A DNA stretch of 64,000 nucleotides, taken from positions 62,001 through 126,000 of the forward strand of contig NZ_BEDT01000004.1 of NCBI RefSeq assembly GCF_002260845.1. Reading direction: 5' to 3'. The position numbers were made by a program, and so were the translations under genes. The notes beneath the pieces were generated by a model. That model was given only the letters and a program-made list of their open reading frames with translations. It was not told where the DNA came from and ran no database searches. This DNA is from Pseudolactococcus reticulitermitis. Lineage in GTDB: Bacteria > Bacillota > Bacilli > Lactobacillales > Streptococcaceae. Positions 2,806-58,566 of this stretch are shown in pieces. The first letter of the stretch is position 1; every line of letters starts with the position of its first letter.

Positions 2806-3537
2806 TTAATGCTCCATTTCATTATCTGGTTGATTAGGGGAATCGAAATCCCAAGTGATATGGCCTGTCCGAAGTGTTTCAGACGCTGCTTTGTCGATAG
2901 GTGGTTGATTTTCAAAAGGTAGCGGCCCATCTAGGGCTGGGCGTTTTTCAAAAGGGATACTTGAATCGTAGATAATCCCAGTGGCATCATCTGTGGTAAT
3001 GCCATTATTTTGCGTATAATCGGGCAAGGGATATTGGTTGAGAAAATTGACCAAAAAATCAATGTTTTCAGGAGGGGTCTCATCCTGTTCAGCAAACTCA
3101 TCTTCCCCAATCAAAGGTAATTTTCGCTCACGCAAGATACGCTCATAATCATAGGTTGCACCATCAAGTTCAAGCTTAGTCTCATCGTAGGTGGCTTGCG
3201 CTTGAACGACTGCATAAAAAGCAGTTTGACTATTAGATTTTTGAGTCTGATTGCTCATTTGCGCAGCATCATATGCTTTTTTGGCAACGTCAAGGTCATG
3301 ATTAGCCGTGATGAGCGCTTTTTCTGATAAGTGGGGTTGCAGCTCTAAAGTATTGGCATGTTGAATGGCGAGAGAGTAATTTAAAGTTTTAGTTTCGAAA
3401 TTTTTTTGAGCTTCAGCACTCTCTTTTTTAGCTTCTTCTAAACGAAGCATGACGATATTGAGTTTGTCTGAAGCTTGATTAAAGGCCAGTTCAGCTTCTA
3501 GAAGTCGCGTTTTGGCTTGTAAAAGTAGATCAGTCAT
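2806..3537 (-). CDS. Coiled-coil hypothetical protein (243 aa)
   Basis: Residues 1 to about 140 form an Ala/Glu/Lys/Gln-rich segment with a coiled-coil heptad look (AKTRLLEAELAFNQASDKL...). The C-terminal 100 residues are acidic and Pro-rich (DETPPENIDF, PLPFENQPPIDK), probably disordered. There is no signal peptide or membrane segment. It lies 23 bases after rarA and two bases before the 61-residue gene, so the three likely form one operon. Function is not recognised. Confidence 0.6.
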   Translation of the reverse strand: MTDLLLQAKTRLLEAELAFNQASDKLNIVMLRLEEAKKESAEAQKNFETKTLNYSLAIQHANTLELQPHLSEKALITANHDLDVAKKAYDAAQMSNQTQKSNSQTAFYAVVQAQATYDETKLELDGATYDYERILRERKLPLIGEDEFAEQDETPPENIDFLVNFLNQYPLPDYTQNNGITTDDATGIIYDSSIPFEKRPALDGPLPFENQPPIDKAASETLRTGHITWDFDSPNQPDNEMEH

Positions 3538-19436: not shown

Positions 19437-20216
19437 ATGAAAAAGACAATTTTGGTTGTGCTATCTTCTGTATTATTAAGTGGGTCATTACTTGCTAACG
19501 CCGATGCGATAAATCAAGAAACAACTGAAACTGGCATTGTGTTTACACAAAAAAAAGTAGTCAGTTCTCCGCGTAATCCAAAGGATCCGAGAAAACCATT
19601 TATAGGGAAGGAAGGCCTTATCGACACTTTCGAAGATGATAATGAACAGAATCATTCGCTAGCGACACAAGCGAATCCGAAACTTTTAAGTTGCAATGAG
19701 GCAACAGACTTCGGCTTGTCTCATGTACCTGCGAATTTATCATTTGGTGTGATTAGAGATACAGAAGGTGTTTCAGTTTATCGTTCGCATGGGAATGCTG
19801 CATTTTACGAAGATGACAACTTTTTTTTACAAATGGTGGATAATCGTGATCAATCATCTACTGATTGGCACATTAGTGTGCAACTGCAAGACAAGATTTC
19901 TTCTGCTAGTGGTTCCCATAAAGTGGATGGCGCAATGCTCTGGTTTCCAAAAGGTGACGCAAGAAATGAGTTGAATCAAGATAGTGCAACAGTTGACACA
20001 TCGAATTTTGAAAATTTTGGTGGTTACGTCACTGATACAACACCGTTAGAAGTTTGGCGTACAAAGGGGGATTTAGAAACACGCGGGAAAGCTGTTTCAA
20101 CTTATGTTTGGGATGCTAACGCGATAGAGTTACATATCCCTGACGATGCTGGACTTTTAAATGAGAAATATTCATTTAGACTGCTTTGGACAGCAGCAGT
20201 ATCACCAGATATATAA
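19437..20216 (+). CDS. WxL-domain surface protein (small, divergent)
   Basis: 259 residues with a signal peptide (MKKTILVVLSSVLLSGSLLANADA). The C-terminal 170 residues follow the WxL plan: LSFGVI, MVDNRDQSSTDWHISVQL and the terminal SFRLLWTAAV. The W-x-L motifs are relaxed (WHI, WTA), so wall binding may differ. The Pro-rich spacer is short (PRNPKDPRKP). It is the first gene of the first csc cluster, behind an AAAAAGGGGG ribosome site. WxL proteins attach non-covalently to peptidoglycan. Confidence 0.75.
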   Translation: MKKTILVVLSSVLLSGSLLANADAINQETTETGIVFTQKKVVSSPRNPKDPRKPFIGKEGLIDTFEDDNEQNHSLATQANPKLLSCNEATDFGLSHVPANLSFGVIRDTEGVSVYRSHGNAAFYEDDNFFLQMVDNRDQSSTDWHISVQLQDKISSASGSHKVDGAMLWFPKGDARNELNQDSATVDTSNFENFGGYVTDTTPLEVWRTKGDLETRGKAVSTYVWDANAIELHIPDDAGLLNEKYSFRLLWTAAVSPDI

Positions 20217-20243
20217 CTATTAAAAATAGAAAGAGATTTAAAC

Positions 20244-20960
20244 ATGAGAAACCTAAAATTATTTTCGGTATTAGCTTTAGCAGTGTTTGCAACAACTGTA
20301 GCAAACGAAGTTGTTAAGGCAGATCCACTTCTTGATCGTTCGACAGCAGGAAGCATTGAATTTGACGATGATACAACGACAATCATTACGCCAACGGATC
20401 CAGAAAATCCAGGCTCAGTATTGCCAGTTACACCAACCGACCCAGCGTATCCAGGTGACGTTATTCCTGGACCTAGCGGTGGCTTGTTCTTAGCGACTAT
20501 CCCTAAAACCTTCAATTTTGGTAGCCATAAGATTGGTGCTACAGATATTTTTTCTGGGGGTATTTTAACTTATGCTCAAGAAGCAAGTTTTGATGATAAA
20601 ACTTACTCACAAGCAGTAAGCGTCCACGATGGTCGGATTTCAAAACATGATTGGATGCTAACTGCGCAATTATCAGCATTTGATTCTGGTAAATTAACTG
20701 GTTCAACAATTACAATTGATCAGGTCAAAACAGTTTCTCAATTTGCAAATCAAGAACCATTGTTGATTCAAGGTGCAAAAACAGAAATCACACAAACTAG
20801 TCCGGTTAATTTCTTAAAATCTAATCCCAAAGCAAAAGGTGACACTTCTGCAGTATGGACAGATGCTTCAGATGTAAAAATCCATATCCCTGCAGATAAA
20901 ATCACTAAGGGTGTGCACAAAGCAACAGTTGATTGGACTTTGGTAGCGGGTGCTAACTAA
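20244..20960 (+). CDS. WxL-domain surface protein (CscC-type)
   Basis: 238 residues: signal peptide ending near VANEVVKA, Pro-rich spacer (ITPTDPENPGSVLPVTPTDP), then the WxL domain with FNFGSHKIG, VHDGRISKHDWMLTAQL and the terminal TVDWTLVAG. Starts 27 bases after the previous gene and is probably in the same operon. The family acts as the wall-bound part of csc complexes. Confidence 0.85.
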   Translation: MRNLKLFSVLALAVFATTVANEVVKADPLLDRSTAGSIEFDDDTTTIITPTDPENPGSVLPVTPTDPAYPGDVIPGPSGGLFLATIPKTFNFGSHKIGATDIFSGGILTYAQEASFDDKTYSQAVSVHDGRISKHDWMLTAQLSAFDSGKLTGSTITIDQVKTVSQFANQEPLLIQGAKTEITQTSPVNFLKSNPKAKGDTSAVWTDASDVKIHIPADKITKGVHKATVDWTLVAGAN

Positions 20961-21029
20961 TTGTTTCAATCTAAATATACCTGTATCAAATAAAACTATC
21001 AAGATATAACTAAAAGGGGAATCCGAATT

Positions 21030-21812
21030 ATGAAAACGATTAAATTACTTTCGGCTTTGGCGTTGACACTCGCGACAGCAACAGCAGTTTCAACAGTAGC
21101 TTCTGCAGAAACAACAAACTCATCAGTTGAATTATTAACTGATACTGGTAATGGTGCAACAATGATTCTACCAACTGACCCTGAAAAACTAGGAACTGAT
21201 TTGCCAGGTACAATCTATCCAAGTGGTCAAAAACCTGACATTACTGATCCATCAGTTGTTAAAGGGAAAGAGATTGTAACGAATACGACCTATCCGAATA
21301 CAGTTGTTCCAGGATATGCCGGAGATCTTTATTTCTCATTGATTCCTAAACAATTTAACTTTGGTGCGCACAAGGTTAATGCGGCAGACCAACAAAAAGG
21401 TGTGACTTACAAACAAGAATCAGCGCAGCCTTTTAGTCACGTTCAAGCAGTTGAAGTTCATGATGGACGTGTGTCTACTGGTGACGATTGGCATGTAGCA
21501 GCGGACTTGGGAGCATTACCTAATATTAAAGGTGCTACCATCACTTTTAGGAACACTAAAGTGAACACTGAGTACACGGGTGGTGCGATTAGATTAGGTA
21601 AAGATCACAATGTAACAGCCAAAACCTTCACATTAACTGAGGGTGCTGGGGCAAAAAACTTCTTGAGCGCAGGGACACAATCTAAAGGTGATAGCTCTGC
21701 TTACTGGCGTGATATTAATGATTTAGAAATCTCTATCCCTGCAGGCTCACTAAAAGTTGGTACCCATACTGCTGATGTGACGTGGACGTTAACCAACACA
21801 CCAGAAGTTTAA
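21030..21812 (+). CDS. WxL-domain surface protein (CscC-type)
   Basis: 260 residues with signal peptide (ALTLATATAVSTVASA), a spacer with ILPTDPEKLGTDLPGTIYP, and WxL domain features FNFGAHKVN, VEVHDGRVSTGDDWHVAADL and the terminal DVTWTLTNTPEV. An AAAAGGGG site precedes the ATG. It is a clear paralogue of the genes on either side. Confidence 0.88.
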   Translation: MKTIKLLSALALTLATATAVSTVASAETTNSSVELLTDTGNGATMILPTDPEKLGTDLPGTIYPSGQKPDITDPSVVKGKEIVTNTTYPNTVVPGYAGDLYFSLIPKQFNFGAHKVNAADQQKGVTYKQESAQPFSHVQAVEVHDGRVSTGDDWHVAADLGALPNIKGATITFRNTKVNTEYTGGAIRLGKDHNVTAKTFTLTEGAGAKNFLSAGTQSKGDSSAYWRDINDLEISIPAGSLKVGTHTADVTWTLTNTPEV

Positions 21813-21864
21813 AATTTAAAAGATTAATTCAATTAAAAATAAGAATTAGGAGAAAGAATCAAAT

Positions 21865-22647
21865 ATGAAAAAGACTAAAGTATGGAGTGCCCTAGCACTT
21901 TCAGTAGCTTTGTTGACAGCTACATCAGGTGCTGTTTCAGCTGCAGTTGTTGATGCAACAGGAAAAGCAAAAGAAACGACAGCTAACTCAGCTGGTTTTG
22001 TCACAGATAATACAACTGTCATTGATCCACAACTTCCTGGTGGGGGTGGTGTTGATACATTACCTTCTGGTCCAACTAATCCAGATACAGTAGATCCGAA
22101 AGTAAAAGCGAGTGATTTAGCATTATATGCTTATCCAACTGAATTTAACTTTGGTATCACAAAAATCTCTGCGGCTGACAAACAGAAAACCACAGTCGTA
22201 TTGACCCAAAAGAAATGGGCTACGATCAATAATAATTCCGATGGCACTGATACAACAGATCCAGCAAAACTTCATCAACGGGATTTTCAAAGTCTACGGG
22301 TTCAAGATGGACGATTAAACACAAAAGATTGGACAGTTTCTGCAGAGGCAACACCTTTTACAAATGGTACAAAATCATTGACCGGTGCTAGTATTAATAT
22401 TGCCAACGCAACTGAATATACATCTGATCCTAAGGGGAAAGTAGTAGCAAAGGCAAAATTCAAGATTGAAGCAGATGGTGCTACCGTGACCTCAGACATT
22501 TTGAAAGCAGATCCAGAAGCACGGTTCACATCAGATCTTAAATGGGCTACTGATAAAGTAACGCTAGAATTTCCTGGTGCTGTTATTGATACAGGTAACT
22601 ATAGTTCAACGGTTACATGGACTTTGTCAGGAACACCTGATGTATAA
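21865..22647 (+). CDS. WxL-domain surface protein (CscC-type)
   Basis: 260 residues: signal peptide ending SGAVSA, spacer DPQLPGGGGVDTLPSGPTNP, WxL domain with FNFGITKIS, LRVQDGRLNTKDWTVSAEA and terminal TVTWTLSGTPDV. Preceded by AGGAGAAAG. An intra-operon hairpin follows directly after its stop. Confidence 0.88.
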   Translation: MKKTKVWSALALSVALLTATSGAVSAAVVDATGKAKETTANSAGFVTDNTTVIDPQLPGGGGVDTLPSGPTNPDTVDPKVKASDLALYAYPTEFNFGITKISAADKQKTTVVLTQKKWATINNNSDGTDTTDPAKLHQRDFQSLRVQDGRLNTKDWTVSAEATPFTNGTKSLTGASINIANATEYTSDPKGKVVAKAKFKIEADGATVTSDILKADPEARFTSDLKWATDKVTLEFPGAVIDTGNYSSTVTWTLSGTPDV

Positions 22648-22653
22648 TGACTA

Positions 22654-22690
22654 AAATGATGTGCTTGGAGATACGCAAGTCGTCATTTTT
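22654..22690 (+). terminator. Intra-operon terminator-like hairpin
   Basis: AAATGA and CTTG pair with CAAG and TCATTT around GAGATACG, followed by TTGTCTTTT. It lies between the fourth and fifth WxL genes and could attenuate downstream expression. Confidence 0.5.
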
Positions 22691-22736
22691 GTCTTTTCAA
22701 GATGAACGATTTAGTTTAAGGAGTTGTAACATTAAA

Positions 22737-23507
22737 ATGAAAAGTAAGACATTATTGTGTACGGCAATAGTTCTAATCGTTGCAATATTTCTTATTGGAA
22801 CGGTTGCTTCAGCTGATACGCAAACAAGTAACGGTTTTGCATCTTTTAAAGAAGATACATCGCCTACTAATCCCAAACTGCCAGGTAAAATTGGTGGTGG
22901 GAAAAGTGATCCAGAAGCCCCAGCGGATCTTTTAAATCCAGCTAAAGGCCCCACTATTTACACGCCAATTGGCAAAAATGAACTTGGCATTGTGCAACAT
23001 CCATCAATTTTTAACTTTGGCGAAACAATTCTTAGACCAGATAGCAAAAGAAAGGATTTGGTCGTTAAAGCTTTGTCTAAAAATAAAGATGGGACAGATT
23101 TTGCAGACAAATATGGAGACGGTTCATATGTGCAATATGTGACGGTCTATGATGGTCGCACAGCCTCAGATGGGTGGCAATTAAGTGCTTCGGCAACTGA
23201 GCTAACAGATGTCGCTGCTGCCTCGAAAAAATTGACAGGTGCAACAATTTCAGTCGCTAACACGATGCGTTGGAATGATGATGTGGATGCTGGAAAAGGT
23301 ACCAATAAGAACCTGACAGGAGCGGATTTTACACTTACAACAGATGACACCCCTGTTATAGTTATGGGAACAACTGATGCAAAATATGAATCTGATATTG
23401 TCTTTCGTTCGGAAGATGTTGCCCTGACTATACCCAAGGCAACTATTAAAGTTGGTAACTTTTCATCAACGGTTACATGGACTTTGGTTGCAGCAGCAAC
23501 ACCATAA
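22737..23507 (+). CDS. WxL-domain surface protein (CscC-type)
   Basis: 256 residues from ATG 22737, which opens the signal peptide (MKSKTLLCTAIVLIVAIFLI). The frame is open back to 22647 but that stretch is not signal-like and contains the hairpin. AAGGAG ends 14 bases before the ATG, long for a ribosome site; an in-frame ATT at 22731 is better spaced. Domain features: FNFGETILR, VTVYDGRTASDGWQLSASA and terminal TVTWTLVAAATP. Confidence 0.83.
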   Translation: MKSKTLLCTAIVLIVAIFLIGTVASADTQTSNGFASFKEDTSPTNPKLPGKIGGGKSDPEAPADLLNPAKGPTIYTPIGKNELGIVQHPSIFNFGETILRPDSKRKDLVVKALSKNKDGTDFADKYGDGSYVQYVTVYDGRTASDGWQLSASATELTDVAAASKKLTGATISVANTMRWNDDVDAGKGTNKNLTGADFTLTTDDTPVIVMGTTDAKYESDIVFRSEDVALTIPKATIKVGNFSSTVTWTLVAAATP

Positions 23508-23667
23508 TAGTAAGAGAAATGAAGGTTTTTGTCCTGTCATACTCTGTCATATAAACCTTTAGAAAATTTGTTTTAAATAATGGTAAATTTAAAAAATCGT
23601 AGTTTAGTATTAGAGTATCAAGATAATGTAAAATTTGTGAACCTTGAAAGGAAAAAACAGAACAAGT

Positions 23668-24753
23668 ATGTTAAACAAAAAAATTAAATATCTATCAATT
23701 ATTCTAATACTGACAATGCTTACGGCTAGTCAAATTTTCACGGGCGCAATTATATCGCGTGCGACAACGCAAGGTAATTACTCTATTCAAAAGATAAACC
23801 CAGAAACTGGGGAAATCAAGGAAAATGCTTCTTACTATGATTTGAAGATGGCACCCGGTGAAACCAAAACAATTGAAGCTAAAATTCTCAATAAAGGCTC
23901 TGAAGAAATTACGGTTAAAGATCAAGTTTTTTCAGCTTTTACGAATGCGAATGGTCAAATTGATTATACAAAACAGGCCGATCAGTACGATAAAAGCTTG
24001 AAAATCAAAATGAGTGACATTGCAAAAGTCAAAGCAAGTGATATTAACGCTAAAGTTCCACCAACTGGAGAAACAACCGTTAGTGTGGATATTACGGTGC
24101 CTCATGATGCGCAAACAGGCGTTATCTTAGGATCGTGGCATTTTGAAAAAGAAGATCAAGTGGCTACCGAAGGTAAAAAAGAGGGCGTTACCATTAACTC
24201 TAAGTATGCCTATGCGCTTGCAATTAAAATTACAGTAGACAAAGAAATTGAAAAACCAAATCTGAATCTTTTAAACATTTCAGTTGGCGAGGTTAACTAC
24301 AGAAAAGCTTTTCTGGCAGAGTTACAAAATGATATGCCTACAATCACAGGAAAGATGACCATTGAGGCTAAAGTAACAGCTAAGGGGAAATTTGAGACAC
24401 TATATGAAAATAAATTAGAAGGACTTACTTTCGCACCAAATTCTAACTATAAATTTCCAGTATTTTTAGGTACAGATCAGTTTAAAGTTGGGGAATATAC
24501 GTATCGCATCAAAGCAACGACAGATGATCCAAAATGGTCAAGTAAGACTTGGGAATGGAATAAAGATTTCACTGTCTTACCAGATGAAGCTAAAAAGGGC
24601 AATTCTCAGGCGATTAATGATCCAAGACCTGAGAAAGTGCCAATGTGGGTCTACTTTGCGATTAGTGGATTAACATTATTAATTCTGTTACTTATTTTAT
24701 TGTTGATCATTTTAAAGAAACGTCGTAAAAAGAAAGAAGTTGAAGAAAAATGA
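23668..24753 (+). CDS. cscA: DUF916/DUF3324 WxL-interacting membrane protein (CscA-type)
   Basis: 361 residues from ATG 23668 (MLNKKIKYLSIILIL); the frame runs back to a TTG at 23644. Order: signal peptide, DUF916 domain (YYDLKMAPGETKTIEAKILNKG), second domain (DUF3324-type, LNISVGEVNYRKAFLAELQND), then one membrane helix (MWVYFAISGLTLLILLLILL) and a basic tail KKRRKKKEVEEK. These proteins bind WxL proteins and peptidoglycan and anchor the complex to the membrane. The next gene overlaps its end. Confidence 0.92.
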   Translation: MLNKKIKYLSIILILTMLTASQIFTGAIISRATTQGNYSIQKINPETGEIKENASYYDLKMAPGETKTIEAKILNKGSEEITVKDQVFSAFTNANGQIDYTKQADQYDKSLKIKMSDIAKVKASDINAKVPPTGETTVSVDITVPHDAQTGVILGSWHFEKEDQVATEGKKEGVTINSKYAYALAIKITVDKEIEKPNLNLLNISVGEVNYRKAFLAELQNDMPTITGKMTIEAKVTAKGKFETLYENKLEGLTFAPNSNYKFPVFLGTDQFKVGEYTYRIKATTDDPKWSSKTWEWNKDFTVLPDEAKKGNSQAINDPRPEKVPMWVYFAISGLTLLILLLILLLIILKKRRKKKEVEEK

Positions 24754-24785
24754 TTGGTCTTAGAGCTAACAGAGCTAAGGAGCGT

Positions 24786-25085
24786 ATGGTGAAAAAAATT
24801 GTTAAGTGTCTGTTATTGACGCTTATATTGGTCGTATCTACGGGGTCGCTCCATATTTCAGCTGAAACTTATGGAGAATTTCAAGTAGAAAAAGGAGCAC
24901 CATCGCAGACACCGTTACCGAGTGGCGGAAGTGGTGTTGACGCCGCAAATAAACTTCCTGTGACAGGAGAACAAATAGCTACCTGGGCTATATTTGGTGG
25001 TTTGCTCCTGCTTGCTTTTGTGCTTCTCCTTCTTGCTCTGAGAAAAATAAAAGAAAGGGTGGCAGATGATGTGTTTGAAAAATAA
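24786..25085 (+). CDS. cscD: Small LPXTG wall-anchored protein (CscD-type)
   Basis: 99 residues from ATG 24786; a GTG at 24789 is better spaced from AAGGAG, and the frame is open to 24750. Signal peptide (MVKKIVKCLLLTLILVV), a short Gly/Pro/Ser region, then LPVTG (57-61), a hydrophobic helix and a basic tail: a complete sortase signal. The mature part is only about 30 residues. Its end overlaps the next gene by 20 bases. Confidence 0.85.
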   Translation: MVKKIVKCLLLTLILVVSTGSLHISAETYGEFQVEKGAPSQTPLPSGGSGVDAANKLPVTGEQIATWAIFGGLLLLAFVLLLLALRKIKERVADDVFEK

Positions 25086-27624
25086 AAAGCACTACGTCTA
25101 TGTATCAATGGCTATTGCCATCGTTTTAAGTATGGTGTTAATTGAAACGAAAGCGAATGCGCTTGTTTTACCCAATGTGGGACTTGAGAAAGTTGGTATC
25201 GACCCAGATGACAAGCGTGCTGATTTTGAAGCTGCAGCAACACATCCAGATGCTGATAGGTCGTTTACTTCGATTAAGATTGAGCAACCGGACGAAATAA
25301 CAAATGATGCGGCTTATAAAGCAACGGCAATAGCCAATAATACGTATCGGTTAGTTTCCTCATTGTCTGACTTTATCAGTGCTTGGCGAGATGCTGATAT
25401 TACCTATATCGAAGTTGAAAAAGATTTGCCTAATACAACATTCACTAACGGTGAACGTCCAAACGGTGCGAGTGTCATCGTGCAAGGTAATGGTCATACA
25501 GTCGATTTAGGAAATAATACACTAAAATTAGGTCAAATTAAATCAGAAACAACGACTACTTTCAATAACATTGAATTGAAAGAAGATCTAACGGTAGGAA
25601 CTATCCAAACGGTGTCAACTTCCCTCCTTAATGCCAATAATGGGATCGGAACGAAACTGACGGTCAATCTACATGATTTTAATGTGTCTCAAAGTACAGT
25701 AGCTTCCAAAACTAAGGGGCCAATCAATGTTATCTATGGTATTGGCGCAAGAGTTGTTTTGTCTGGTGAGAATACCTTTAAGATTGCAGGGTCAATTACA
25801 CATAAAGCCGGCAGCGTTGAAGTTGCCAATAATGCAGTTGTGAAACTAGAGCGTAATCCTTCTGATTTGTTTATAGCGGAGTTCAATTTTGATAAATTAC
25901 CATCGGGTAGCGTGAGTAAGTTTAGCGGCTTGAAGATGGGGGATGGTTCTACAAATGATGCCTCTCAGTATGCTAGCACTGGTAATGCACCAAATGCTCA
26001 ACCTGTAAGTGGTAATGCAGAGATGGTTAAAACTGGAGATTATGTCACTTGGAAACTACTGAATTTTGGCTATTTTACAAGGATAGGCGGTTACGATTCT
26101 CCGGCCTTTACGTTTGGTCAAAGTAATACGATTGATATTCCCAAAACTATCAACGGGAATATGATGACGGCTGGTTATGGTAAAGATGTCGTCTTTAATG
26201 CAGGAACTACTTTAGATATTACCCAGAAACTAAGCAGCGATTACTCTCCTATTCAAAATTCGGGAGGAGCGATTAGATTTATTTCACCAAAGACTTTACA
26301 CTTTGCGATAGAAACTCCAGGTAGTCTAGTTAAAGCTGGTAAAATTTATTATGCTACTAGCGGAAGTGCGATGTATATTACTAACTCCGTTATCGAAGGT
26401 TGGACAGGTACTAATGCGCGACCAAATTCACCAAATTTCAGCAGTACTTTTAGAGAGCTAAAGGTCTTGGATAATGGTGCCAGAGTTGACGGTTCTAATA
26501 GAACGGATACTAATTTATTTGGTGCTACAACACGTGAATTCCAAACAGTCGCAACAGGTGTTGGTGAGATTAAGATTAACTATATTGACCAAAATGGTAA
26601 TAAAGTTGGCGATGCCAATTATCCGTTGATTGACAATGTTAATTTTGTTGGTCAGAGTTTTAACCTTGCGACCAAAGAATTCGCCATTGACAACATGCCC
26701 ACAGGTTATAAATGGGCGATTGATGAGCAAGTTTATGAGAAAGCTGGCAGAGGCGATCAGGGACAACCAGGTGGGGATAACACTGACGCTGATGATAATG
26801 GTGATGGTTTCGGTCAAGCGAATTTCGCCATTGTGCCAATGCAAGGTGAAACCTACACCTATAACATTTATGTTTATAGTGAATCAAATCCCAATACCAC
26901 CTATACTTATGTTGACCCGTGGACAGGCTTGTCATTTAAGTCAGATAAAGTAACGGTTGGTAGTGAGAAAGTTGGGAATTATGTGCCAGCTCATGTGGGT
27001 AATACGATTGATTGGACAAATAAACTTTATACCGAAACGAATGTCCCAACAGGTTATGTTTACGTCCCAAGTCGTCTGTTGCCACCGACTATGTCACAGC
27101 CAACAACGACAGAAGTCAAGGATGCTGTAACACCATCAAATACGATTATTTATGTCTATAATCCTAGTTATAAGGGAAGTTTGACACTTTCTGCTGTACC
27201 GAATCTTGATTTTGGTGACCAATTAATTTCACCTGAAAACAGAGGCAAACTCTACCCTGCAACTTTTTCAGATGACTTAACCGTGACTGATGACCGTAGA
27301 AATGTTAAAGATGGCTGGCATTTATCAGTTCAGCAAGCAGCACCTCTCACATCAACAGACGGTAAAACGGTGTTAAGAAACGCCATTTTCTTTCGTGAAG
27401 TAGATGGTGGCACACTAAAGCCTCTAGAAGGTGGCAGTGATCTAGCTGTTTATAACGATGTATCCCAAGCAGCTTTAGGGTTTCAAGAAATAGTTAAACC
27501 AACAAGTAGTTGGAACAAAAAAGCGGATGGTGCTGGTTTCTACCTTAAAGATAATGGTAAATTGCAGGCAGGAGATTATTCGACTGTTCTAACATGGACA
27601 TTGGGAGCAGGACCAAGCCAGTAA
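25066..27624 (+). CDS. cscB: Large WxL-domain surface protein (CscB-type), beta-helix N-terminal region
   Basis: 852 residues. Signal peptide, then a region with pectate-lyase-like repeats of short strands (SVIVQGNGHTVDLGNNTLKL, VVLSGENTFKIAGSITHKAG), a MucBP-like segment (IKINYIDQNGNKVGDANYPL), and a C-terminal WxL domain (LDFGDQLIS, DDRRNVKDGWHLSVQQA, terminal VLTWTLGAGPSQ). The long stalk probably carries carbohydrate or host binding. Starts within the LPXTG gene and ends the first csc cluster. Confidence 0.88.
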   Translation: MMCLKNKKHYVYVSMAIAIVLSMVLIETKANALVLPNVGLEKVGIDPDDKRADFEAAATHPDADRSFTSIKIEQPDEITNDAAYKATAIANNTYRLVSSLSDFISAWRDADITYIEVEKDLPNTTFTNGERPNGASVIVQGNGHTVDLGNNTLKLGQIKSETTTTFNNIELKEDLTVGTIQTVSTSLLNANNGIGTKLTVNLHDFNVSQSTVASKTKGPINVIYGIGARVVLSGENTFKIAGSITHKAGSVEVANNAVVKLERNPSDLFIAEFNFDKLPSGSVSKFSGLKMGDGSTNDASQYASTGNAPNAQPVSGNAEMVKTGDYVTWKLLNFGYFTRIGGYDSPAFTFGQSNTIDIPKTINGNMMTAGYGKDVVFNAGTTLDITQKLSSDYSPIQNSGGAIRFISPKTLHFAIETPGSLVKAGKIYYATSGSAMYITNSVIEGWTGTNARPNSPNFSSTFRELKVLDNGARVDGSNRTDTNLFGATTREFQTVATGVGEIKINYIDQNGNKVGDANYPLIDNVNFVGQSFNLATKEFAIDNMPTGYKWAIDEQVYEKAGRGDQGQPGGDNTDADDNGDGFGQANFAIVPMQGETYTYNIYVYSESNPNTTYTYVDPWTGLSFKSDKVTVGSEKVGNYVPAHVGNTIDWTNKLYTETNVPTGYVYVPSRLLPPTMSQPTTTEVKDAVTPSNTIIYVYNPSYKGSLTLSAVPNLDFGDQLISPENRGKLYPATFSDDLTVTDDRRNVKDGWHLSVQQAAPLTSTDGKTVLRNAIFFREVDGGTLKPLEGGSDLAVYNDVSQAALGFQEIVKPTSSWNKKADGAGFYLKDNGKLQAGDYSTVLTWTLGAGPSQ

Positions 27625-46184: not shown

Positions 46185-46943
46185 ATGGATAATTATCAAG
46201 AATTTGCCCGCGTTTATGACACGATTATGGATGGCACGCTTTATGATGCTTGGCATGATTTTTCGCGTCGCCATTTACCGGCAGAAACTAAGGACATACT
46301 AGAGCTTGCTTGTGGTACAGGCAAGCTTTCTGTGCAGTTTGCGCGAGATGGCTATGCGGTGACGGGGCTTGATTTGTCAGAAGAAATGCTGACGATTGCC
46401 TATAACCGTGCGCTTGACGAGCTGGACGAGTCGGTCGGTATCGGCTTTATCGAGGGCGACATGCGTGATTTGAGCGATGTCGGTACCTATGATGCCGTGA
46501 CCTGTTATAGCGACAGCCTCTGCTACATGCCTGATCGCGAGGCGGTTCAAGCCGTTTTTGACGGCGTTTTCAACGCCTTGAATGCGGGGGGGACTTTTAT
46601 CTTCGATGTGCACTCCGTGCATCAAATCGATCATGTCTTTCCGGGCTATGCCTATCATGAAAACGAAGAAGATTTTGCTTTTATCTGGGACTCATTTCCG
46701 GGAGAAAAAGCCCACAGTATCACGCATGAGTTGACTTTCTTTGTCAAAGACAGTGACGGCAAATTTGAGCGCCGTGATGAAGTCCACGATGAGCGAACTT
46801 ATACGATTGATAACTATCTGACCATGCTAGATAATGCTGGTTTTGTCTCAGTTCAAGTCTTTGCTGACTTTGAAGACCTTGCTCCCCTTGATGCAGATGA
46901 CGACAGCGCTCGCTGGTTCTTTGTGGCAAGTAAATCGGAGTAA
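46185..46943 (+). CDS. Class I SAM-dependent methyltransferase (YqeM)
   Basis: 252 residues starting three bases after rsfS. SAM motif ILELACGTGKLSVQFARDGY (about 40-59), VTGLDLSEEML, FIEGDMRDL and DAVTCYSDSLCYM fit the YqeM family of this operon. The substrate is not established. Confidence 0.88.
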   Translation: MDNYQEFARVYDTIMDGTLYDAWHDFSRRHLPAETKDILELACGTGKLSVQFARDGYAVTGLDLSEEMLTIAYNRALDELDESVGIGFIEGDMRDLSDVGTYDAVTCYSDSLCYMPDREAVQAVFDGVFNALNAGGTFIFDVHSVHQIDHVFPGYAYHENEEDFAFIWDSFPGEKAHSITHELTFFVKDSDGKFERRDEVHDERTYTIDNYLTMLDNAGFVSVQVFADFEDLAPLDADDDSARWFFVASKSE

Positions 46944-46944
46944 A

Positions 46945-47017
46945 GAATGCCTGCTTGGACGGAGCCGTCAGCGCAGGTCAAGTTTCAAGATTTTATGAAA
47001 TAAAATCGCAGAAAGGA
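46945..47017 (+). promoter_or_regulatory. Structured leader element, copy at 47 kb
   Basis: Same element as before the second csc cluster genes: AATGCC-TGCTTGG, then a GGTCAAGTTTCAAG segment, then GATTTTAT-GAA-ATAAAATC (perfect hairpin) and CGCAGAAAGGA as ribosome site. The 5' hairpin (H1) is missing. It precedes the membrane gene at 47024. Confidence 0.7.
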
Positions 47018-47023
47018 TATGTT

Positions 47024-47659
47024 ATGTTCTACTTAGGTATCGCACTTATCATTGGCTTGCTTGCCTACTTCATGCAAGATAAAGGCCAAAGAAAAATGCC
47101 CTTGTGGTTAAAAGTGATTTTAATACTTGTCGTTTTGTATGATCTTGCGATGGTTTCTGAAAAATTATCTGGGATTGCGGTACTCGCTTTACTCGTTTGG
47201 TGGTTTGTCAGACGACCAAGTCGCCAAAAAAGGCAAGAGCTTAAGGCAGCAGCAAAAGTTGAGGCCATGCGTGCTAAAAACGCGTCAGCGCAACCGATAG
47301 ACCCGATCAAACGCTATGTCTCAACGCCTAAACGTCAGGAAGCTCTGGCAGAATTAGACAGCACACCCAAAGAGCTGGCAGCCTATATTCATCAGGAAAT
47401 TGACACCTTTTTCATGAATGAGTGGACGAAGATGTCTGTCATTTATACAGACCAGTCTGATCAGTTTGACGACGATGTCCGTGATAATGCTGGCCATCAG
47501 ATGCGGGAAATTTTGGATGCGATTTTTGCCAAATTTGCCAAGAAGAAACGGGCAGAAATGGTCGAAAAACAAGCCATCAACGCAGAATTGAAAGCCCAGC
47601 ACAAACAAGAAATTGACATCGCCATGCAAGTCTATGAGAAATGGCAGGACAAGGCATGA
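47024..47659 (+). CDS. Membrane-anchored hypothetical protein
   Basis: 211 residues from ATG 47024; the frame is open to 46955 but that part is the leader element. Two to three N-terminal hydrophobic segments ([48 protein letters not shown]) are followed by a basic, helical cytosolic domain ([20 protein letters not shown]...). Function not recognised. Its TGA overlaps the tmcAL start (ATGA), implying coupled translation. Confidence 0.65.
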
Positions 47660-54273: not shown

Positions 54274-54335
54274 TTGATTGACCGTCAGGTAGGTCAAGTT
54301 GTCAAGCTTTTGCGAAGTGAAAGCTCAGAAAGGAG
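54274..54335 (+). promoter_or_regulatory. Structured leader element before cscD
   Basis: TTGACC (54278) pairs with GGTCAA (54292); then AGCTTTTGC-GAA-GTGAAAGCT (54305-54325) forms a hairpin, followed by CAGAAAGGAGG. Compared with other copies both stems differ in sequence but keep pairing. Confidence 0.7.
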
Positions 54336-54341
54336 GGAGGT

Positions 54342-54695
54342 TTGAATAAGAAAAACGTTTTAGTTTTGATGCTATTGCTTTTGACATTACCAGCGGCTGC
54401 TGCTTTTGCAGATGAAACGGATGTGACCACACAGGGGAATGTTGGCTTTACTGGAAAGTGGGAGTCGCCACCGTCATCGCAAGAACCGTCCGCAGCAACA
54501 GGTGATAGGGCAGCGCTAGAACCGCCTCCTGCAAGCCATTTACCAGTGACAGTAGTCGACGGCACAGGAACCACAGCAATCAATCTTCCGGCAACGGGGG
54601 AGGCTGAGCAGTCGCCGGTGTTGACGACCCTGCTAGGGGTGATGTTGGTCATACTTGTGATGGGAGGTGTGCAGTCGCAACGCTCACGCCAATAG
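54342..54695 (+). CDS. cscD: Small LPXTG wall-anchored protein (CscD-type)
   Basis: 117 residues from a TTG start at 54342 behind GGAGGGAGG. Signal peptide (NKKNVLVLMLLLLTLPAAAAFA), a Pro/Ser-rich mature part, LPATG at residues 82-86, a hydrophobic helix (VLTTLLGVMLVILVMGG) and basic end RSRQ. A sortase would link it to peptidoglycan. First gene of the second csc cluster; it is not closely similar to the first cluster's LPXTG protein. Confidence 0.85.
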   Translation: MNKKNVLVLMLLLLTLPAAAAFADETDVTTQGNVGFTGKWESPPSSQEPSAATGDRAALEPPPASHLPVTVVDGTGTTAINLPATGEAEQSPVLTTLLGVMLVILVMGGVQSQRSRQ

Positions 54696-54813
54696 TTCAA
54701 TCAAACAGCACAACACGCAGAGTAGTCCCCGACATCATCAAGTCGGTCAGGACTTAGGAAAAAAGGAGGGCACACAGCCATAACTAGCAGTCGATGTCTA
54801 ATAACAACATCAA

Positions 54814-54909
54814 GACTTTGAGCGGACAAGGTTCGCAAATGACCTCACTTGGCAGGCGCGTAAGCGGTTGTCAAGTTCAAAATTTGACGGAGTCAAATCG
54901 TAGAAGGAG
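54814..54909 (+). promoter_or_regulatory. Structured leader element before cscC copy 1
   Basis: GCGGAC/GTTCGC hairpin, AATGACCTCACTTGGCAG, TGTCAAG, and ATTTGA-CGGAG-TCAAAT before AGAAGGAG. The three stems H1, H2 and H3 are present. Upstream, GTCC-CGAC pairs with GTCG-GGAC (54727-54754) as an extra hairpin. Confidence 0.7.
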
Positions 54910-54916
54910 AACTAGG

Positions 54917-55768
54917 ATGAACAAACCCATACTGAAAGCCTCAACATTGCTGGCAACCCTCTTGATTTCAGGCGCAGCGTTAAGTGCGATTGTCAGCGCA
55001 ACGACGATTGGTGGCGACTACACCTCAAGTGCCAACCTAACCCTAGAAGCTGGCGAGGGACCCACAACGCCCCTTGATCCAGAAAATCCAGACGACCCCA
55101 TCACACCAGAAATCCCTGGGACAGGCGGTGAAGGTGGCAATCTGACTGTTGACTATGGCTCTACCCTTTTCTTTGGGAAGCAGAGCATTTCCTCACAGGC
55201 AGCGACCTATTATGCTCACCCAGATTTGGTTAGGGATTCAGGCAGTCATGTGAAAGCGGTACCGCTCTATGCGCAAGTCACAGACCAGTCAGGAGAATTA
55301 GCGGGATGGACTTTGACCTTGACCCAAGCTGCGCAGTTGCATCTGGGGTCAGGTAGCGATACTGATCCAGGCTATGCCCTGAACGGCGCTACCATTAACT
55401 TTAGTGGTGGGACGATTGTTGGTGGTTATGGTTTAGAAGATGGCGTGCCAAGTACTTTTGTCGAGTCTGGAACATTAATCCCTGGTCATGCAGTCCAGCT
55501 CGTAGGTGCAGGCAATGGCGAAGGTGCCGGCACTTGGCTCTATCACTTTGGCGCGATAGGCGATTATGATACAAGCGCAGTCAATACGGCAGATACATCA
55601 GACCACACAGGCAAAGCCACAAAATCACCGATTACCCTAACTATTCCAGCAGGCGTGGTACAAAAAGCCGCAGCTTACTCAACAGAACTCTACTGGAGTT
55701 TGCAAGCTGTACCCGGTGGTGACTGGACAGGTGAGACAGACGCAAAGGATGTAATACCAGCGCCATAA
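54917..55768 (+). CDS. cscC: WxL-domain surface protein (CscC-type), tandem copy 1
   Basis: 283 residues from ATG 54917; the frame to 54794 is leader RNA. Signal peptide (LLATLLISGAALSAIVSA), spacer TPLDPENPDDPITPEIPG, then WxL domain: YGSTLFFGKQSIS, VTDQSGELAGWTLTLTQA and near the end TELYWSLQAVPGG. The second motif is WSL, and about 15 polar residues extend past it, unlike the paralogues. Confidence 0.87.
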   Translation: MNKPILKASTLLATLLISGAALSAIVSATTIGGDYTSSANLTLEAGEGPTTPLDPENPDDPITPEIPGTGGEGGNLTVDYGSTLFFGKQSISSQAATYYAHPDLVRDSGSHVKAVPLYAQVTDQSGELAGWTLTLTQAAQLHLGSGSDTDPGYALNGATINFSGGTIVGGYGLEDGVPSTFVESGTLIPGHAVQLVGAGNGEGAGTWLYHFGAIGDYDTSAVNTADTSDHTGKATKSPITLTIPAGVVQKAAAYSTELYWSLQAVPGGDWTGETDAKDVIPAP

Positions 55769-55859
55769 GCCGTCTATCAAGATGATTAGAGCAGGTGTTG
55801 TCAAAGTGTCGTGACGCCATCACAAACTTTCGCAGTCAAATTAGTAAGCAATTTAGAAA

Positions 55860-55969
55860 ACCTTTGAGCGGATGCAAGTTCTGCAAGTTCGCAAATGTCC
55901 CTGCTTGGCCGGCGCATAGCGTAGGTCAAGTTTCCAGATTTCACAGGACGTGAAATCGCAGAAAGGAGC
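55860..55969 (+). promoter_or_regulatory. Structured leader element before cscC copy 2
   Basis: GAGCGGA, a 9-base tandem TGCAAGTTC x2, GTTCGCAAATG, CTTGGCC pairing with GGTCAAG, and GATTTCAC-AGGAC-GTGAAATC before CGCAGAAAGGAG. An additional H3-like hairpin without a gene start lies at about 55796-55832. Confidence 0.7.
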
Positions 55970-55974
55970 AACTC

Positions 55975-56763
55975 ATGAATAAACGACTCGTAACCTCAGC
56001 CTCAGTCTTGACTGCTGGTCTGATTCTCGCACCGATTTTTGCAACAACTGCTAGTGCCACTGATGTCGCCGCTTACACCTCAGGTGGTTATGTGAGCTTT
56101 GAAGCCGGTGGTACAGTGACACCAGTTGACCCGCTAAATCCACAGGACTTGATTACACCAACAGATCCTGATGGGACTGATCCAGATCCTGGGACAGCTG
56201 CACCGCTATCCATCGACTTTGCGTCAAGCTTGAGCTTTGGTAAGCAAGCCGTTTCAGGGATTAATGCGACCTACTATGCGCATGCCCAGTATATCAGTAA
56301 AGATAAAGATGGGACTGATGTTGATGAAACGCGACCTAACTATGTGCAAGTCACAGATAACCGTGGGACTCAGGCGGGGTGGACTTTGACTGTCGCTGAA
56401 GCAGCGCAATTTACATCGGATGATTCAGATGCTGCCGAATTGGACGGTGCACAACTCTTCTTCTATAAAGGTAGAGCGCTAGGTTCTAACAGTTACACGC
56501 CAAAATATGTGGCGACCAATGAACAAGAAATTTCAACCTCAGCGACTAAAATCATGGCTGCTGCCATTGCACAAGGGATGGGGACATGGGCCTACCGTTG
56601 GGGAGATAACAGCGATTATCAAGAAAATGGTGGGGGGCATCTCGCAATAGATGCCATCTCAACTAAGTCACCGATTACCCTGAAAGTTCCTGGCGGTGCT
56701 GCGATGGCTAAAGTCTATAAAACAGAACTTATCTGGACATTGAGCGATGTTCCAGAAACTTGA
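55975..56763 (+). CDS. cscC: WxL-domain surface protein (CscC-type), tandem copy 2
   Basis: 262 residues: signal peptide ending TTASA, spacer TPVDPLNPQDLITPTDPDG, WxL domain with FASSLSFGKQAVS, VTDNRGTQAGWTLTVAEA and terminal TELIWTLSDVPET. Paralogue of the neighbouring genes, each carried on its own leader element. Confidence 0.9.
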   Translation: MNKRLVTSASVLTAGLILAPIFATTASATDVAAYTSGGYVSFEAGGTVTPVDPLNPQDLITPTDPDGTDPDPGTAAPLSIDFASSLSFGKQAVSGINATYYAHAQYISKDKDGTDVDETRPNYVQVTDNRGTQAGWTLTVAEAAQFTSDDSDAAELDGAQLFFYKGRALGSNSYTPKYVATNEQEISTSATKIMAAAIAQGMGTWAYRWGDNSDYQENGGGHLAIDAISTKSPITLKVPGGAAMAKVYKTELIWTLSDVPET

Positions 56764-56812
56764 GCGGAGGTCAAGTTTCCAGATTTTACAAAGTAAAATC
56801 GCAGAAAGGAGG
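56762..56812 (+). promoter_or_regulatory. Structured leader element before cscC copy 3 (short form)
   Basis: GAGCGGA joins directly to GGTCAAGTTTCCAG, so H1 and the 5' arm of H2 are missing. GATTTTAC-AAA-GTAAAATC and CGCAGAAAGGAGG are intact. Confidence 0.7.
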
Positions 56813-56817
56813 GTGCT

Positions 56818-57570
56818 GTGAAAACAAAAACTTTGTTAAGCCTGCCACTCATCCTGATGGTTCTGGGTTTAACGACACATACTGAGGCGGTAACGCATCA
56901 AACCTATGATTCGAAAGGCATTGTCGGCTTTAACGCTGGCAGCGGTCAGCAACTGCCGGTAGACCCTAATCGACCTGACCCGACCTTTCCGGTCACCCCT
57001 CAAAACCCAGATGGCTCAGTCCCTAGTCCCGGTGGCAACAGCGCGCTGACCATTGACTTCGCCTCCAGTTTGGATTTTGGCAGTCATGCGATTTCAAACC
57101 AAGACCAAACTTACACGGCAAAAGCTCAAGCCTATGTCAATGCGACAAACCTGACACCTAACTATGTCCAAGTGACGGACAGACGTGGCACATTTTCTGG
57201 CTGGGTCTTAAAGGTCGTTGAGCTGTCTCAGTTCACACAAGTAGCGACAGGACCACAGCAATATCCCGTATTGACAGGGGCTGCGATTTCATTGAGTAAT
57301 CACACCCCTGTCTCGCACACGAGGCAAGCCGCACCACAAGCGCCAACCACTGCCCAAACCTTAATTCCGGGTGTGGAATCTCAAATCGCCCTCGCCACTT
57401 CAGGCGCGGGTGCAGGCACATGGGTTATCCGTTGGGGCGACCAAATCAATCTGACTTCGGATGGGCTCAGCCCAGATGTTACCTTATTTGTCCCAGGGGC
57501 GACACCCAAGGATGCGGCAGCTTATCAGACAACACTAAAATGGATATTGGCTGAATTGCCTACCAATTAA
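56818..57570 (+). CDS. cscC: WxL-domain surface protein (CscC-type), tandem copy 3
   Basis: 250 residues from GTG 56818 behind AAAGGAGGG. Signal peptide (MKTKTLLSLPLILMVLGLTT), spacer LPVDPNRPDPTFPVTPQNP, WxL domain: FASSLDFGSHAIS, VTDRRGTFSGWVLKVVEL (first motif WVL) and terminal TLKWILAELPTN (WIL). Confidence 0.88.
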   Translation: MKTKTLLSLPLILMVLGLTTHTEAVTHQTYDSKGIVGFNAGSGQQLPVDPNRPDPTFPVTPQNPDGSVPSPGGNSALTIDFASSLDFGSHAISNQDQTYTAKAQAYVNATNLTPNYVQVTDRRGTFSGWVLKVVELSQFTQVATGPQQYPVLTGAAISLSNHTPVSHTRQAAPQAPTTAQTLIPGVESQIALATSGAGAGTWVIRWGDQINLTSDGLSPDVTLFVPGATPKDAAAYQTTLKWILAELPTN

Positions 57571-57574
57571 TCGA

Positions 57575-57675
57575 CTCTGAGCGAACCAATTTCGCGAATG
57601 CCCCCGCTTGCCCAGCACACCAGCACAGGTCAAGTTTTGGTAGATCACAGAAAGCGAAAGCGCAGAAAGGAGGTT
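57575..57675 (+). promoter_or_regulatory. Structured leader element before cscC copy 4
   Basis: GCGAA-CCAA-TTCGC replaces GCGGAC/GTTCGC, AATGCCCCCGCTTG is followed by CCC...GGTCAAG, and CGCAGAAAGGAGG precedes the GTG. The third stem is weak in this copy. Confidence 0.65.
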
Positions 57676-57678
57676 ATC

Positions 57679-58434
57679 GTGTCAAAAAAATCAGTAACTT
57701 ATCGAACAGTTACGGCACTCGCAGGCTTAGCATTGACCATCCTACCGCAAGCCGCGCGTGCCACGACAACACAAACCTACGATTCAGACGGCTATGTCGC
57801 CTTTACCGCAGGGACTGATAGGACAGGTCCAGTGGATCCGCAAAATCCCACGGAAGCTGTCACCCCGGTCAATCCCTCAGGCACAACGCCTGAAGGGCCA
57901 TCTATCGCCAATGCCAGTCTTACCATTGTCTATGCCTCAAGTTTTGACTTTGGGGCGCATCCGATCAGCAACCGCGCCGAAAGCTACAAGGCTGCGGCAC
58001 AAGCTCTGAACGATGGCAGCACGCGAACCAACTACGTCCAAGTATCCGATAACCGCGGGACTTTCTCAGGCTGGCACTTGAAAGTCACCCTCACGGATTT
58101 TACAACCGCCGATACGGCGCTTCGCGCCAATGGTCATAGCACACTAGCAGGTGCAACTGTGACCCTTGGTGATGCAGCCATTCAGGGCGCTGCAACAGCT
58201 AATCCTGCAGATATTTATACCCCCTTAACTGTCTTGGTGCCAACGGTACAATCCCCAACGCTACTCGGGGCAACCGCAGGTCATGGCTCAGGCACCAATT
58301 TGCTAGATTTTGGCGGCACAGATGGGGCAAGCAAAGACACGGCAGTAACCCTATCCGTACCCGCAGGCGTTGCTGGGGCAGCGAGTTACACAGCAGATCT
58401 GACTTGGCAACTTGACGACACGCCCGTGAATTAA
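57679..58434 (+). CDS. cscC: WxL-domain surface protein (CscC-type), tandem copy 4
   Basis: 251 residues from GTG 57679; the open frame to 57598 is leader. Signal peptide (VTALAGLALTILPQAARA), spacer GPVDPQNPTEAVTPVNPSG, WxL domain: YASSFDFGAHPIS, VSDNRGTFSGWHLKVTLT and terminal DLTWQLDDTPVN (WQL). Confidence 0.88.
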   Translation: MSKKSVTYRTVTALAGLALTILPQAARATTTQTYDSDGYVAFTAGTDRTGPVDPQNPTEAVTPVNPSGTTPEGPSIANASLTIVYASSFDFGAHPISNRAESYKAAAQALNDGSTRTNYVQVSDNRGTFSGWHLKVTLTDFTTADTALRANGHSTLAGATVTLGDAAIQGAATANPADIYTPLTVLVPTVQSPTLLGATAGHGSGTNLLDFGGTDGASKDTAVTLSVPAGVAGAASYTADLTWQLDDTPVN

Positions 58435-58470
58435 ATCAATATAAAATTGCCGATGAAAATCGCAGCAAGC

Positions 58471-58566
58471 CTTTGAGCGGACGTAGTTCGCGAATGACCC
58501 CGCTTGGCAGTGCGCCAGAGACTGTCAAGTTTCAAGCTTTGCCGAAGGAAAATCGCAGAAAGGGAG
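58471..58566 (+). promoter_or_regulatory. Structured leader element before cscB
   Basis: GCGGAC-GTA-GTTCGC, AATGACCCCGCTTGGCAG pairing with CTGTCAAG, and TTTGCC-GAA-GGAAAA before CGCAGAAAGGGAG. Confidence 0.7.

What the first reader, a model, noticed from the sequence alone, without database searches (positions are those of the whole stretch)
54274..58566. Repeated leader RNA with covarying hairpins in front of six csc genes
Seen: the 5' regions of cscD, four cscC copies and cscB share an element GAGCGGAC-GTTCGC-AATGnCCCnGCTTGG...GTCAAGTTTC...hairpin...CGCAGAAAGGAG that ends exactly at the ribosome site. Stems change sequence but keep pairing. H1: GCGGAC/GTTCGC versus GCGAA/TTCGC. H2: CTTGGCAG/CTGTCAAG, CTTGGCC/GGTCAAG, TTGACC/GGTCAA. 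H3: ATTTGA/TCAAAT, GATTTCAC/GTGAAATC, GATTTTAC/GTAAAATC, AGCTTTTGC/GTGAAAGCT. Such compensation points to selection on RNA structure. Some copies lack stems (copy 3 lacks H1 and half of H2; cscD lacks H1; H3 is weak in copy 4). Inference: a cis-regulatory leader controlling translation of surface-protein genes. I know no described motif with this layout. Alternative: simple tandem duplication of a cassette, which explains similarity but not the covariation.
Basis: partly seen in the sequence, partly recalled or inferred. Interest (0 to 1): 0.82.

Follow-up and report, generated by a model that had tools for sequence, protein, structure and literature searches.

The report
Genome-wide repeat inserting at ribosome sites
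The 'leader' in front of the csc genes is one of about fifty copies of a small folded repeat that seems to have spread through the genomes of a few lactococci and their kin by landing, nearly always in the direction of the gene, in the ribosome-binding sites of unrelated genes and rebuilding those sites with its own end.

Summary
A ~93-nt element ending in CGCAGAAAG is fused to the Shine-Dalgarno (SD) sequence of six csc genes. Its hairpins covary beyond a home-made phylogenetic null, and no Rfam family matches. The csc-specific reading fails: a covariance model finds 48 copies in the 2.17-Mb genome, and a second WxL cluster in the window has none. Of 335 genomes of the family, 7 have a match. 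Of 127 arrays from seven genomes, 118 have a start codon of an ORF of at least 50 aa 6-16 nt downstream; the mirror-image control gives 3. Empty sites at trmFO and, less clearly, cysS place insertion at AAG|GA inside the SD, the element's own end rebuilding it. The rebuilt end is a new target, which may explain tandem arrays. Best reading: a non-autonomous, SD-inserting mobile repeat, now in the 5' leaders of about 40 genes of this genome. The mobilising enzyme was not found (Y1 transposase does not co-occur); effects on translation are untested. New variant of a known kind (MITE/BOX/MIRU-like repeats).

The parts
46919..47015 (+). element copy, 5' part degenerate, 3' end fused to SD of the 211-aa ORF at 47024 (not csc; no Pfam hit)
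   Evidence: model R1, 64.9 bits
54237..54332 (+). element copy, 5'-truncated (no H1), SD of cscD-like ORF 54342-54695
   Evidence: R1, 33.5 bits
54816..54907 (+). full-length element copy, SD variant AGAAGG, before small WxL gene 54917-55768
   Evidence: R1, 90.7 bits; WxL PF13731
55862..55965 (+). full-length element copy with long H1 loop, before WxL gene 55975-56763
   Evidence: R1, 86.1 bits; PF13731
56738..56808 (+). element copy with internal deletion (H1 and half of H2 gone), overlapping the stop of the upstream gene, before WxL gene 56818-57570
   Evidence: R1, 46.7 bits; PF13731
57575..57669 (+). full-length element copy, H3 weak, before WxL gene 57679-58434
   Evidence: R1, 72.2 bits; PF13731
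58471..58562 (+). full-length element copy, H3 weak, before large ORF 58572-63551
   Evidence: R1, 89.8 bits; no Pfam hit for the ORF at E 0.001
54342..54695 (+). cscD-like ORF (117 aa, LPxTG-like C-terminus by eye: LPATGE)
   Evidence: ORF; no Pfam hit
19437..27624 (+). second WxL/csc cluster in the window without any element copy (negative control)
   Evidence: WxL and WxLIP hits; no R1 hit there

Best explanation
It is a non-autonomous interspersed repeat of about 93 nt that inserts in one orientation into Shine-Dalgarno sequences, at (A)AAG|GA. Shown: the sequence family, the three-hairpin fold under selection, the position before start codons, one clear and one weaker empty/occupied pair, tandem units, genome-specific subfamilies and a patchy distribution. 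The unit reads [A/C]CTTTGAGCG...CGCAGAAAG. Its 3' end supplies AGAAAG in front of the remaining G(A/G), so the SD is rebuilt at its normal distance from the start codon and the gene survives. Inferred: the rebuilt AGAAAG|G is itself a target, so later units land at the same place and give head-to-tail arrays. Inferred: the fold is recognised by an unknown trans-acting mobilising activity, on single-stranded DNA or RNA, and effects on translation of the host gene are secondary.
For: 48 copies in the own genome and none in the one-contig congener G010 with the full or half models. 7 of 335 family genomes positive at E 1e-6 (strict filters). 118 of 127 arrays have a start codon of an ORF of at least 50 aa 6-16 nt after the end, against 3 of 127 for the mirror image; with ORFs of at least 80 aa, 113 against 0. 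The bases left of 98 first units are SD-like: A(G/A)AAG(A/C) in G000, G005 and the G009 set, AGAAAAGA in G018. trmFO: G009 AACTAAAAAAG|GAAAT (empty; G008 also empty) against G000 AACTAAAAAAG|A-CTTTGAG...GCTGAAAG|GAAAT; cysS: G005 CTCAAG|GAGAA (empty) against G000 ATCAAG|A-CTTTGAG...CAGAAG|GAGAA. Tandem units joined at AAAG-N-CTTTGAG. Nearest relatives lie in the same genome for 36 of 39 copies of G018 and 6 of 7 of G002. Downstream genes look functionally unrelated. Covariation.
Against: No mobilising enzyme and no autonomous copy found. Y1 transposase is absent from element-rich G000, G002, G009 and G018. The terminal 12 bases with up to one mismatch gave no left end on another body in the six unexplained hits read, of seven. 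No insertion was caught between strains of one species. Only two of three genes tested gave readable empty sites, and at cysS only a few bases of the left flank align. In G005, G009 and G008 most copies are nearer to copies of another genome (own-genome neighbour for 10 of 34, 3 of 25, 0 of 6), and 15 site groups are shared between species, which speaks for old insertions there. Some left flanks, above all in G018, may be ends of undetected upstream units. The motif alone does not explain the near-exclusive start-site position, so retention because of function is not excluded.
Confidence: 0.74

Rival explanations
1. A cis-regulatory RNA family (translation or mRNA-stability control) that was amplified and kept because it regulates its ~40 host genes; the UUUC/GAAA pairing next to H3 tunes SD access.
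For: Position before start codons in 118 of 127 arrays; copies at sites shared by species (15 groups) often keep their hairpins by eye; UUUC/GAAA can pair in 97% of cells and changed on both sides once, UUUU with AAAA in L074; the AAAGG motif alone would predict many non-RBS intergenic insertions; 3' ends are lost in 3 of 180 units, 5' ends in 34.
Against: Host genes share no evident pathway. Absent from six of eleven congeners that have the same trmFO, ctsR and cysS genes. Several copies have lost H1, H2 or H3 while keeping the SD end. UUUC/GAAA shows no covariation above null (167 of 400).
Confidence: 0.16
2. Nested in the best explanation: a non-autonomous member of the IS200/IS605 (Y1, single-strand) world; left guide CTTT before H1 pairs with target AAAG, right guide TTTC before H3 pairs with GAAA at the 3' cleavage site.
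For: Guide-hairpin-cleavage-site layout at both ends; no clear target-site duplication at the two empty sites; oriented insertion; 3' end equal to target; 3 of 5 copies with the short end AGAAGG also have an altered guide.
Against: PF01797 present in only 3 of 18 genomes, two with and one without the element, and absent from four element-rich ones; flanks of the two Y1 copies in element-bearing genomes do not resemble the element; 2 of 5 AGAAGG copies keep the usual guide. Odds lowered from a draft value of 0.20 after this recount.
Confidence: 0.17
3. Leader of csc genes spread by tandem duplication of a csc cassette.
For: One likely gene-plus-element duplicate (56738-57570 and C4:129442).
Against: 35 of 41 arrays of the own genome lie outside the six csc sites; the second WxL cluster lacks it.
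Confidence: 0.02
4. Chance similarity of strong SD sequences plus ordinary 5' hairpins.
For: AGAAAGGAG is a plain SD.
Against: 35 of 48 own-genome matches score above 60 bits over 93 positions; reversed pattern 0 hits against 19; no match at E 1e-6 in 328 of 335 family genomes.
Confidence: 0.01

Closest known systems
BOX elements of Streptococcus pneumoniae (with RUP, SPRITE)
   Same: Small folded repeats, tandem modules, scattered between genes of a streptococcal chromosome; held to be parasitic elements (PMC3049150, abstract and passages seen)
   Different: Sequences not compared here; BOX has boxA/B/C modules and TIRs likened to ISSpn2; the passages seen do not describe fusion to the SD or fixed orientation to the gene
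MIRU of Mycobacterium (Supply et al. 1997; recalled, not read; searches did not list it)
   Same: As recalled: 77-101-bp oriented, tandem interspersed units in translation-initiation junctions of operons (DTGA sites)
   Different: Target there is a stop/start overlap, here the SD; here the end of the unit rebuilds the target
TAACTGA heptamer repeats of Beggiatoaceae
   Same: 169 repeat sets, mostly oriented towards and just upstream of start codons of unrelated genes (PMC4679880, passages seen)
   Different: 7-nt repeats with little SD character and no folded unit described in the passages; they overlap the RBS position rather than rebuild an SD
IS200/IS605-derived small elements (PATE, REP; recalled)
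   Same: Hairpins near both ends, guide-like tetramers, oriented insertion after a short target, no obvious duplication
   Different: No co-occurring Y1 transposase; membership not shown
ERIC and Correia elements
   Same: Folded repeats inside transcripts; orientation-dependent mRNA effects for ERIC (passages in PMC2229807 and PMC3049150)
   Different: Different hosts; not tied to the SD in the passages seen; sequences not compared

Membership tests
MITE-like non-autonomous repeat | multiple dispersed copies without coding capacity | tested here: met
   48 copies of about 93 nt
MITE-like non-autonomous repeat | terminal inverted repeats | tested here: inconclusive
   CTTTGAGCG / CGCAGAAAG agree at 7 of 9 positions (consensus); no covariation between them
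MITE-like non-autonomous repeat | target-site duplication | tested here: inconclusive
   trmFO: AAAG on both sides but indistinguishable from a fixed end; cysS: only AAG shared
MITE-like non-autonomous repeat | related autonomous IS in the same genome | tested here: not met
   No separated halves seen with the 5' and 3' models in G000; none with the 12-base end in six of seven unexplained hits. A partner sharing shorter ends is not excluded
MITE-like non-autonomous repeat | occupied and empty orthologous sites | tested here: met
   trmFO clearly, cysS less so
IS200/IS605-derived element | Y1 transposase available in the host | tested here: not met
   0 in G000, G002, G009, G018; present in G005, G008, G011
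IS200/IS605-derived element | subterminal hairpins with guide sequences complementary to the cleavage sites | tested here: inconclusive
   H1 and H3 with CTTT and TTTC are present, but the guides barely vary and cleavage was not tested
Rfam-described cis-regulatory RNA | match to a curated family | tested here: not met
   0 hits at gathering score in the window; three weak hits to eukaryotic families at E up to 5
csc/WxL gene leader | restricted to csc genes | tested here: not met
MIRU | insertion in DTGA stop/start overlaps (recalled) | tested here: not met
   Junction is AAAG|G of the SD
BOX | boxA-boxB-boxC modules and sequence | not tested
   Compared from passages only
any mobile repeat | observed transposition | not testable with these tools
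   needs strains or experiment

The most novel reading that the evidence does not exclude
The repeat targets translation-initiation sites as RNA: the folded transcript, or its cDNA, recognises SD regions and is copied into them, a bacterial counterpart of a SINE. This would explain why the start-site position is almost exclusive although AAAGG occurs elsewhere, and why 3' ends are intact in 177 of 180 units while 34 have lost the 5' end, though selection to keep the SD would do the same.
Probability: 0.09. Interest if true: 0.95.

Novelty: new variant of a known kind. Interest (0 to 1): 0.68.

Why it matters
An element that sits in the most sensitive few bases of a gene's leader, yet rebuilds them, would be a neat solution to insertion without killing the host gene. 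It would add the same ~93-nt folded segment to dozens of mRNAs at once. It offers a natural set of occupied and empty genes in which an effect on translation can be measured. It also poses a clear question: what enzyme reads the SD in DNA or RNA?

Tried and rejected
Rejected: csc-specific leader (genome-wide copies); known Rfam family; Y1/IS200 transposase as resident partner; an autonomous relative with shared halves or shared 12-base end in the own genome (the orphan 5' half at C1:214274 is an internally deleted copy that still ends in CAGAAAGGG before ATG; the six unexplained 12-base hits read look by eye like chance hits; the seventh, C4:153736, was not read); phage carriage (no match in 50,697 phage records with one unit as query; the one viral-contig hit, L257, lacks the hairpin by eye and is spurious). 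A target-duplication rule was sought in left/right flanks without success; the guide table was partly mis-parsed and only its flank counts are used; guides of short-ended copies were recounted. The alternative pairing TGACC/GGTCA showed no covariation (99 of 400 nulls as high), nor did the terminal repeats CTTT/AAAG (177) and GCG/CGC (318). Single-sequence folds are not uniformly strong: z from -4.1 to -0.4.

Limits: the covariation null is home-made (Fitch-reconstructed substitutions re-placed on a FastTree tree), not R-scape; with 40 nulls only pairs 69-83 and 70-82 pass E 0.05 alone, 68-84 has E 0.086, and 4 of the top 15 pairs are not structural partners. Slid controls were mostly near null, but H3 slid by one still reached the 18-of-400 level. 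G-T cells exceed A-C cells 425 to 105, but without the two pairs that are G-U in most copies only 169 to 105, so the sense strand as the folded one is favoured, not proved. Units studied in detail: 180: 49 of G000, 40 of G005 (43 listed), 48 of G018 (51) and 43 from G009, G008, G002 and G004, with G008 and G002 only in part. 26 of the 180 were left out of the tree: 22 by length or N, 4 identical. One G018 array that runs into withheld bases was left out of the 127. The count of AAAGG sites by context rests on rough gene calls in the window. Names of downstream genes are mine from N-termini, except those with Pfam or record annotation.
Full report
WHAT WAS CHECKED. The six csc leaders are present as described. 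An alignment of 14 copies gave a covariance model, R1. It finds seven copies in the window and 48 in the window's genome of 2.17 Mb at E 0.01, 35 of them above 60 bits. A plain pattern for the 3' half has 19 exact hits in that genome and none when read backwards. No Rfam family reaches its threshold in the window.

WHERE THE COPIES ARE. In the own genome 49 units form 41 arrays; 39 of the 41 are followed 6-16 nt downstream by a start codon of an ORF of at least 50 aa, and the last bases AGAAAG usually join GA or GG to make the SD. The genes look unrelated: peptidyl-prolyl isomerase-, NuoF-, MgtE-, CtsR-, GalE-, NifJ-, RbfA-, TrmFO-, CysS-, PstB- and Fba-like products, named by me from their N-termini. 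Over 127 arrays from seven genomes the figure is 118; the mirrored position upstream gives 3. With ORFs of at least 80 aa the figures are 113 and 0, and random points in the same loci give about 10 of 127. A second WxL cluster in the window has no copy, so csc genes are not special.

HOW IT GOT THERE. The leaders of three genes were compared in 12 congeneric genomes (the trmFO start of one, G006, was not found). At trmFO the genome G009 reads AACTAAAAAAG|GAAAT, G008 is empty too, and the own genome reads AACTAAAAAAG|A-CTTTGAGC...GCTGAAAG|GAAAT, with identical bases well to the left; G005 carries three units there. At cysS G005 reads CTCAAG|GAGAA and the own genome ATCAAG|A-CTTTGAG...CAGAAG|GAGAA, but the flank further left does not align well. 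ctsR holds three units in the own genome and worn copies in G005, G008 and G009; in the other congeners I could not align the stretch. The left flank of 98 first units is SD-like: A(G/A)AAG then A or C in three sets, AGAAAAGA in G018, though some of these may be ends of undetected upstream units. Units follow each other as AAAG-N-CTTTGAG, in G018 as AGAAAAGA-CTT(T/C)GAG, as expected if the rebuilt end serves as the next target. 34 of 180 units have lost a recognisable 5' end and 3 the 3' end; some are internally deleted between short repeats.

DISTRIBUTION. In 335 genomes of the family seven have the element at E 1e-6 under strict filters: six of the genus and G018 of another genus. Six of eleven congeners have none. 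The nearest copy from another locus lies in the same genome for 36 of 39 copies of G018, 6 of 7 of G002, 31 of 42 of G000, but only 10 of 34 of G005, 3 of 25 of G009 and 0 of 6 of G008: recent amplification in some, older copies in others. The commonest H3 arm differs between such sets, GAAATCAC in 12 of 39 G018 copies and GCTGTCGC in 5 of 7 of G002, with complementary partners in the examples aligned. 15 groups of sites are shared between species. On plasmids a full copy stands before scrK in L. raffinolactis and L. lactis; the only hit in G004 precedes the same gene start. A 3' half is found on 12 Lactococcus plasmids; in the three regions read it stands before galM, with an IS6 transposase nearby in two. 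So the element can hitch-hike with genes.

STRUCTURE. On 154 distinct copies a scan of all column pairs put 11 structural pairs among its top 15: six of H3, pair 39-54 of H2, three of H1 and the new pair 4-24. Helix sums exceeded nearly all of 400 tree-based nulls: H1 reached by 0, pair 4-24 by 2, H2 by 1, H3 by 0. On 32 gapless copies 94.4% and 95.2% of cells form standard pairs in the 5' and 3' halves, and all five measures exceed every one of 500 shuffles and all slides; these structures were chosen with such copies in view. Pair 4-24 lies beyond a conserved GA/GA tandem. UUUC before H3 and GAAA of the SD end can pair in 97% of cells but hardly vary, so this pairing is not proved by covariation. 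G-T cells outnumber A-C cells 425 to 105, or 169 to 105 without the two mostly G-U pairs: this favours the sense strand as the folded one. mRNA and single-stranded DNA cannot be told apart.

MECHANISM. The anatomy fits a mobile repeat that reads (A)AAG|GA. The enzyme is unknown. The guide-like tetramers recall IS200/IS605 ends, but Y1 transposases are missing from four element-rich carriers. In the window AAAGGA outside coding sequence occurs 9 times at and 9 times away from start sites, five of the former being element ends (rough gene calls). So either start sites are read specifically, or insertions elsewhere were lost, or copies at start sites are kept for an effect. I hold passenger-with-side-effects the likeliest, regulation next.

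LITERATURE. Searches (listings) showed no paper describing SD-rebuilding repeats in lactococci; the only hit for the element's letters is an unrelated shRNA paper (listing). Passages were seen in PMC4679880, PMC2229807, PMC10969869, PMC3049150 and PMC1534035; no paper was read whole. The MIRU and PATE/REP comparisons are recalled.

VERDICT. Real, selected structure; wrong scope. It is a genome-wide SD-inserting repeat, a new variant of the small-interspersed-repeat kind, with mobility inferred from empty sites, tandem units and subfamilies, and regulation untested.

Noticed in passing
window 19437-27624: Second WxL cluster: five small WxL genes, a WxL-interacting protein (PF06030/PF11797) and a large WxL protein with a pectate-lyase-like adhesive domain, none with the element.
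   Followed up: partly
L018, just 3' of the element at 1501-1594 (minus strand; G000:C1 ~299180): After the element the SD end is repeated: GTCGCAGAAAGG TTGCAGAAAGG before the GTG start, as if short 3'-end pieces had been duplicated or inserted again.
   Followed up: no
L260, L261, L262 around 3001-3046: galM cassette on Lactococcus plasmids carries a 3' half-element at its SD and lies near IS6 transposases in two of three regions read; its upstream joint differs between plasmids.
   Followed up: partly
L132 and L149:1422-1514: Two element ends run into AAAGGAA(C/A)TGAGTT with no long ORF at normal distance (possible two-codon ORF in L149); may mark a leader or a decayed gene.
   Followed up: no
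G000:C4:129442-129532 (L036): Another element copy outside the window before a gene whose start resembles window 56818, a likely gene-plus-element duplicate.
   Followed up: no
L190, L191: One Y1 (IS200-type) transposase each in G008 and G005 in the same neighbourhood, without element-like ends.
   Followed up: yes
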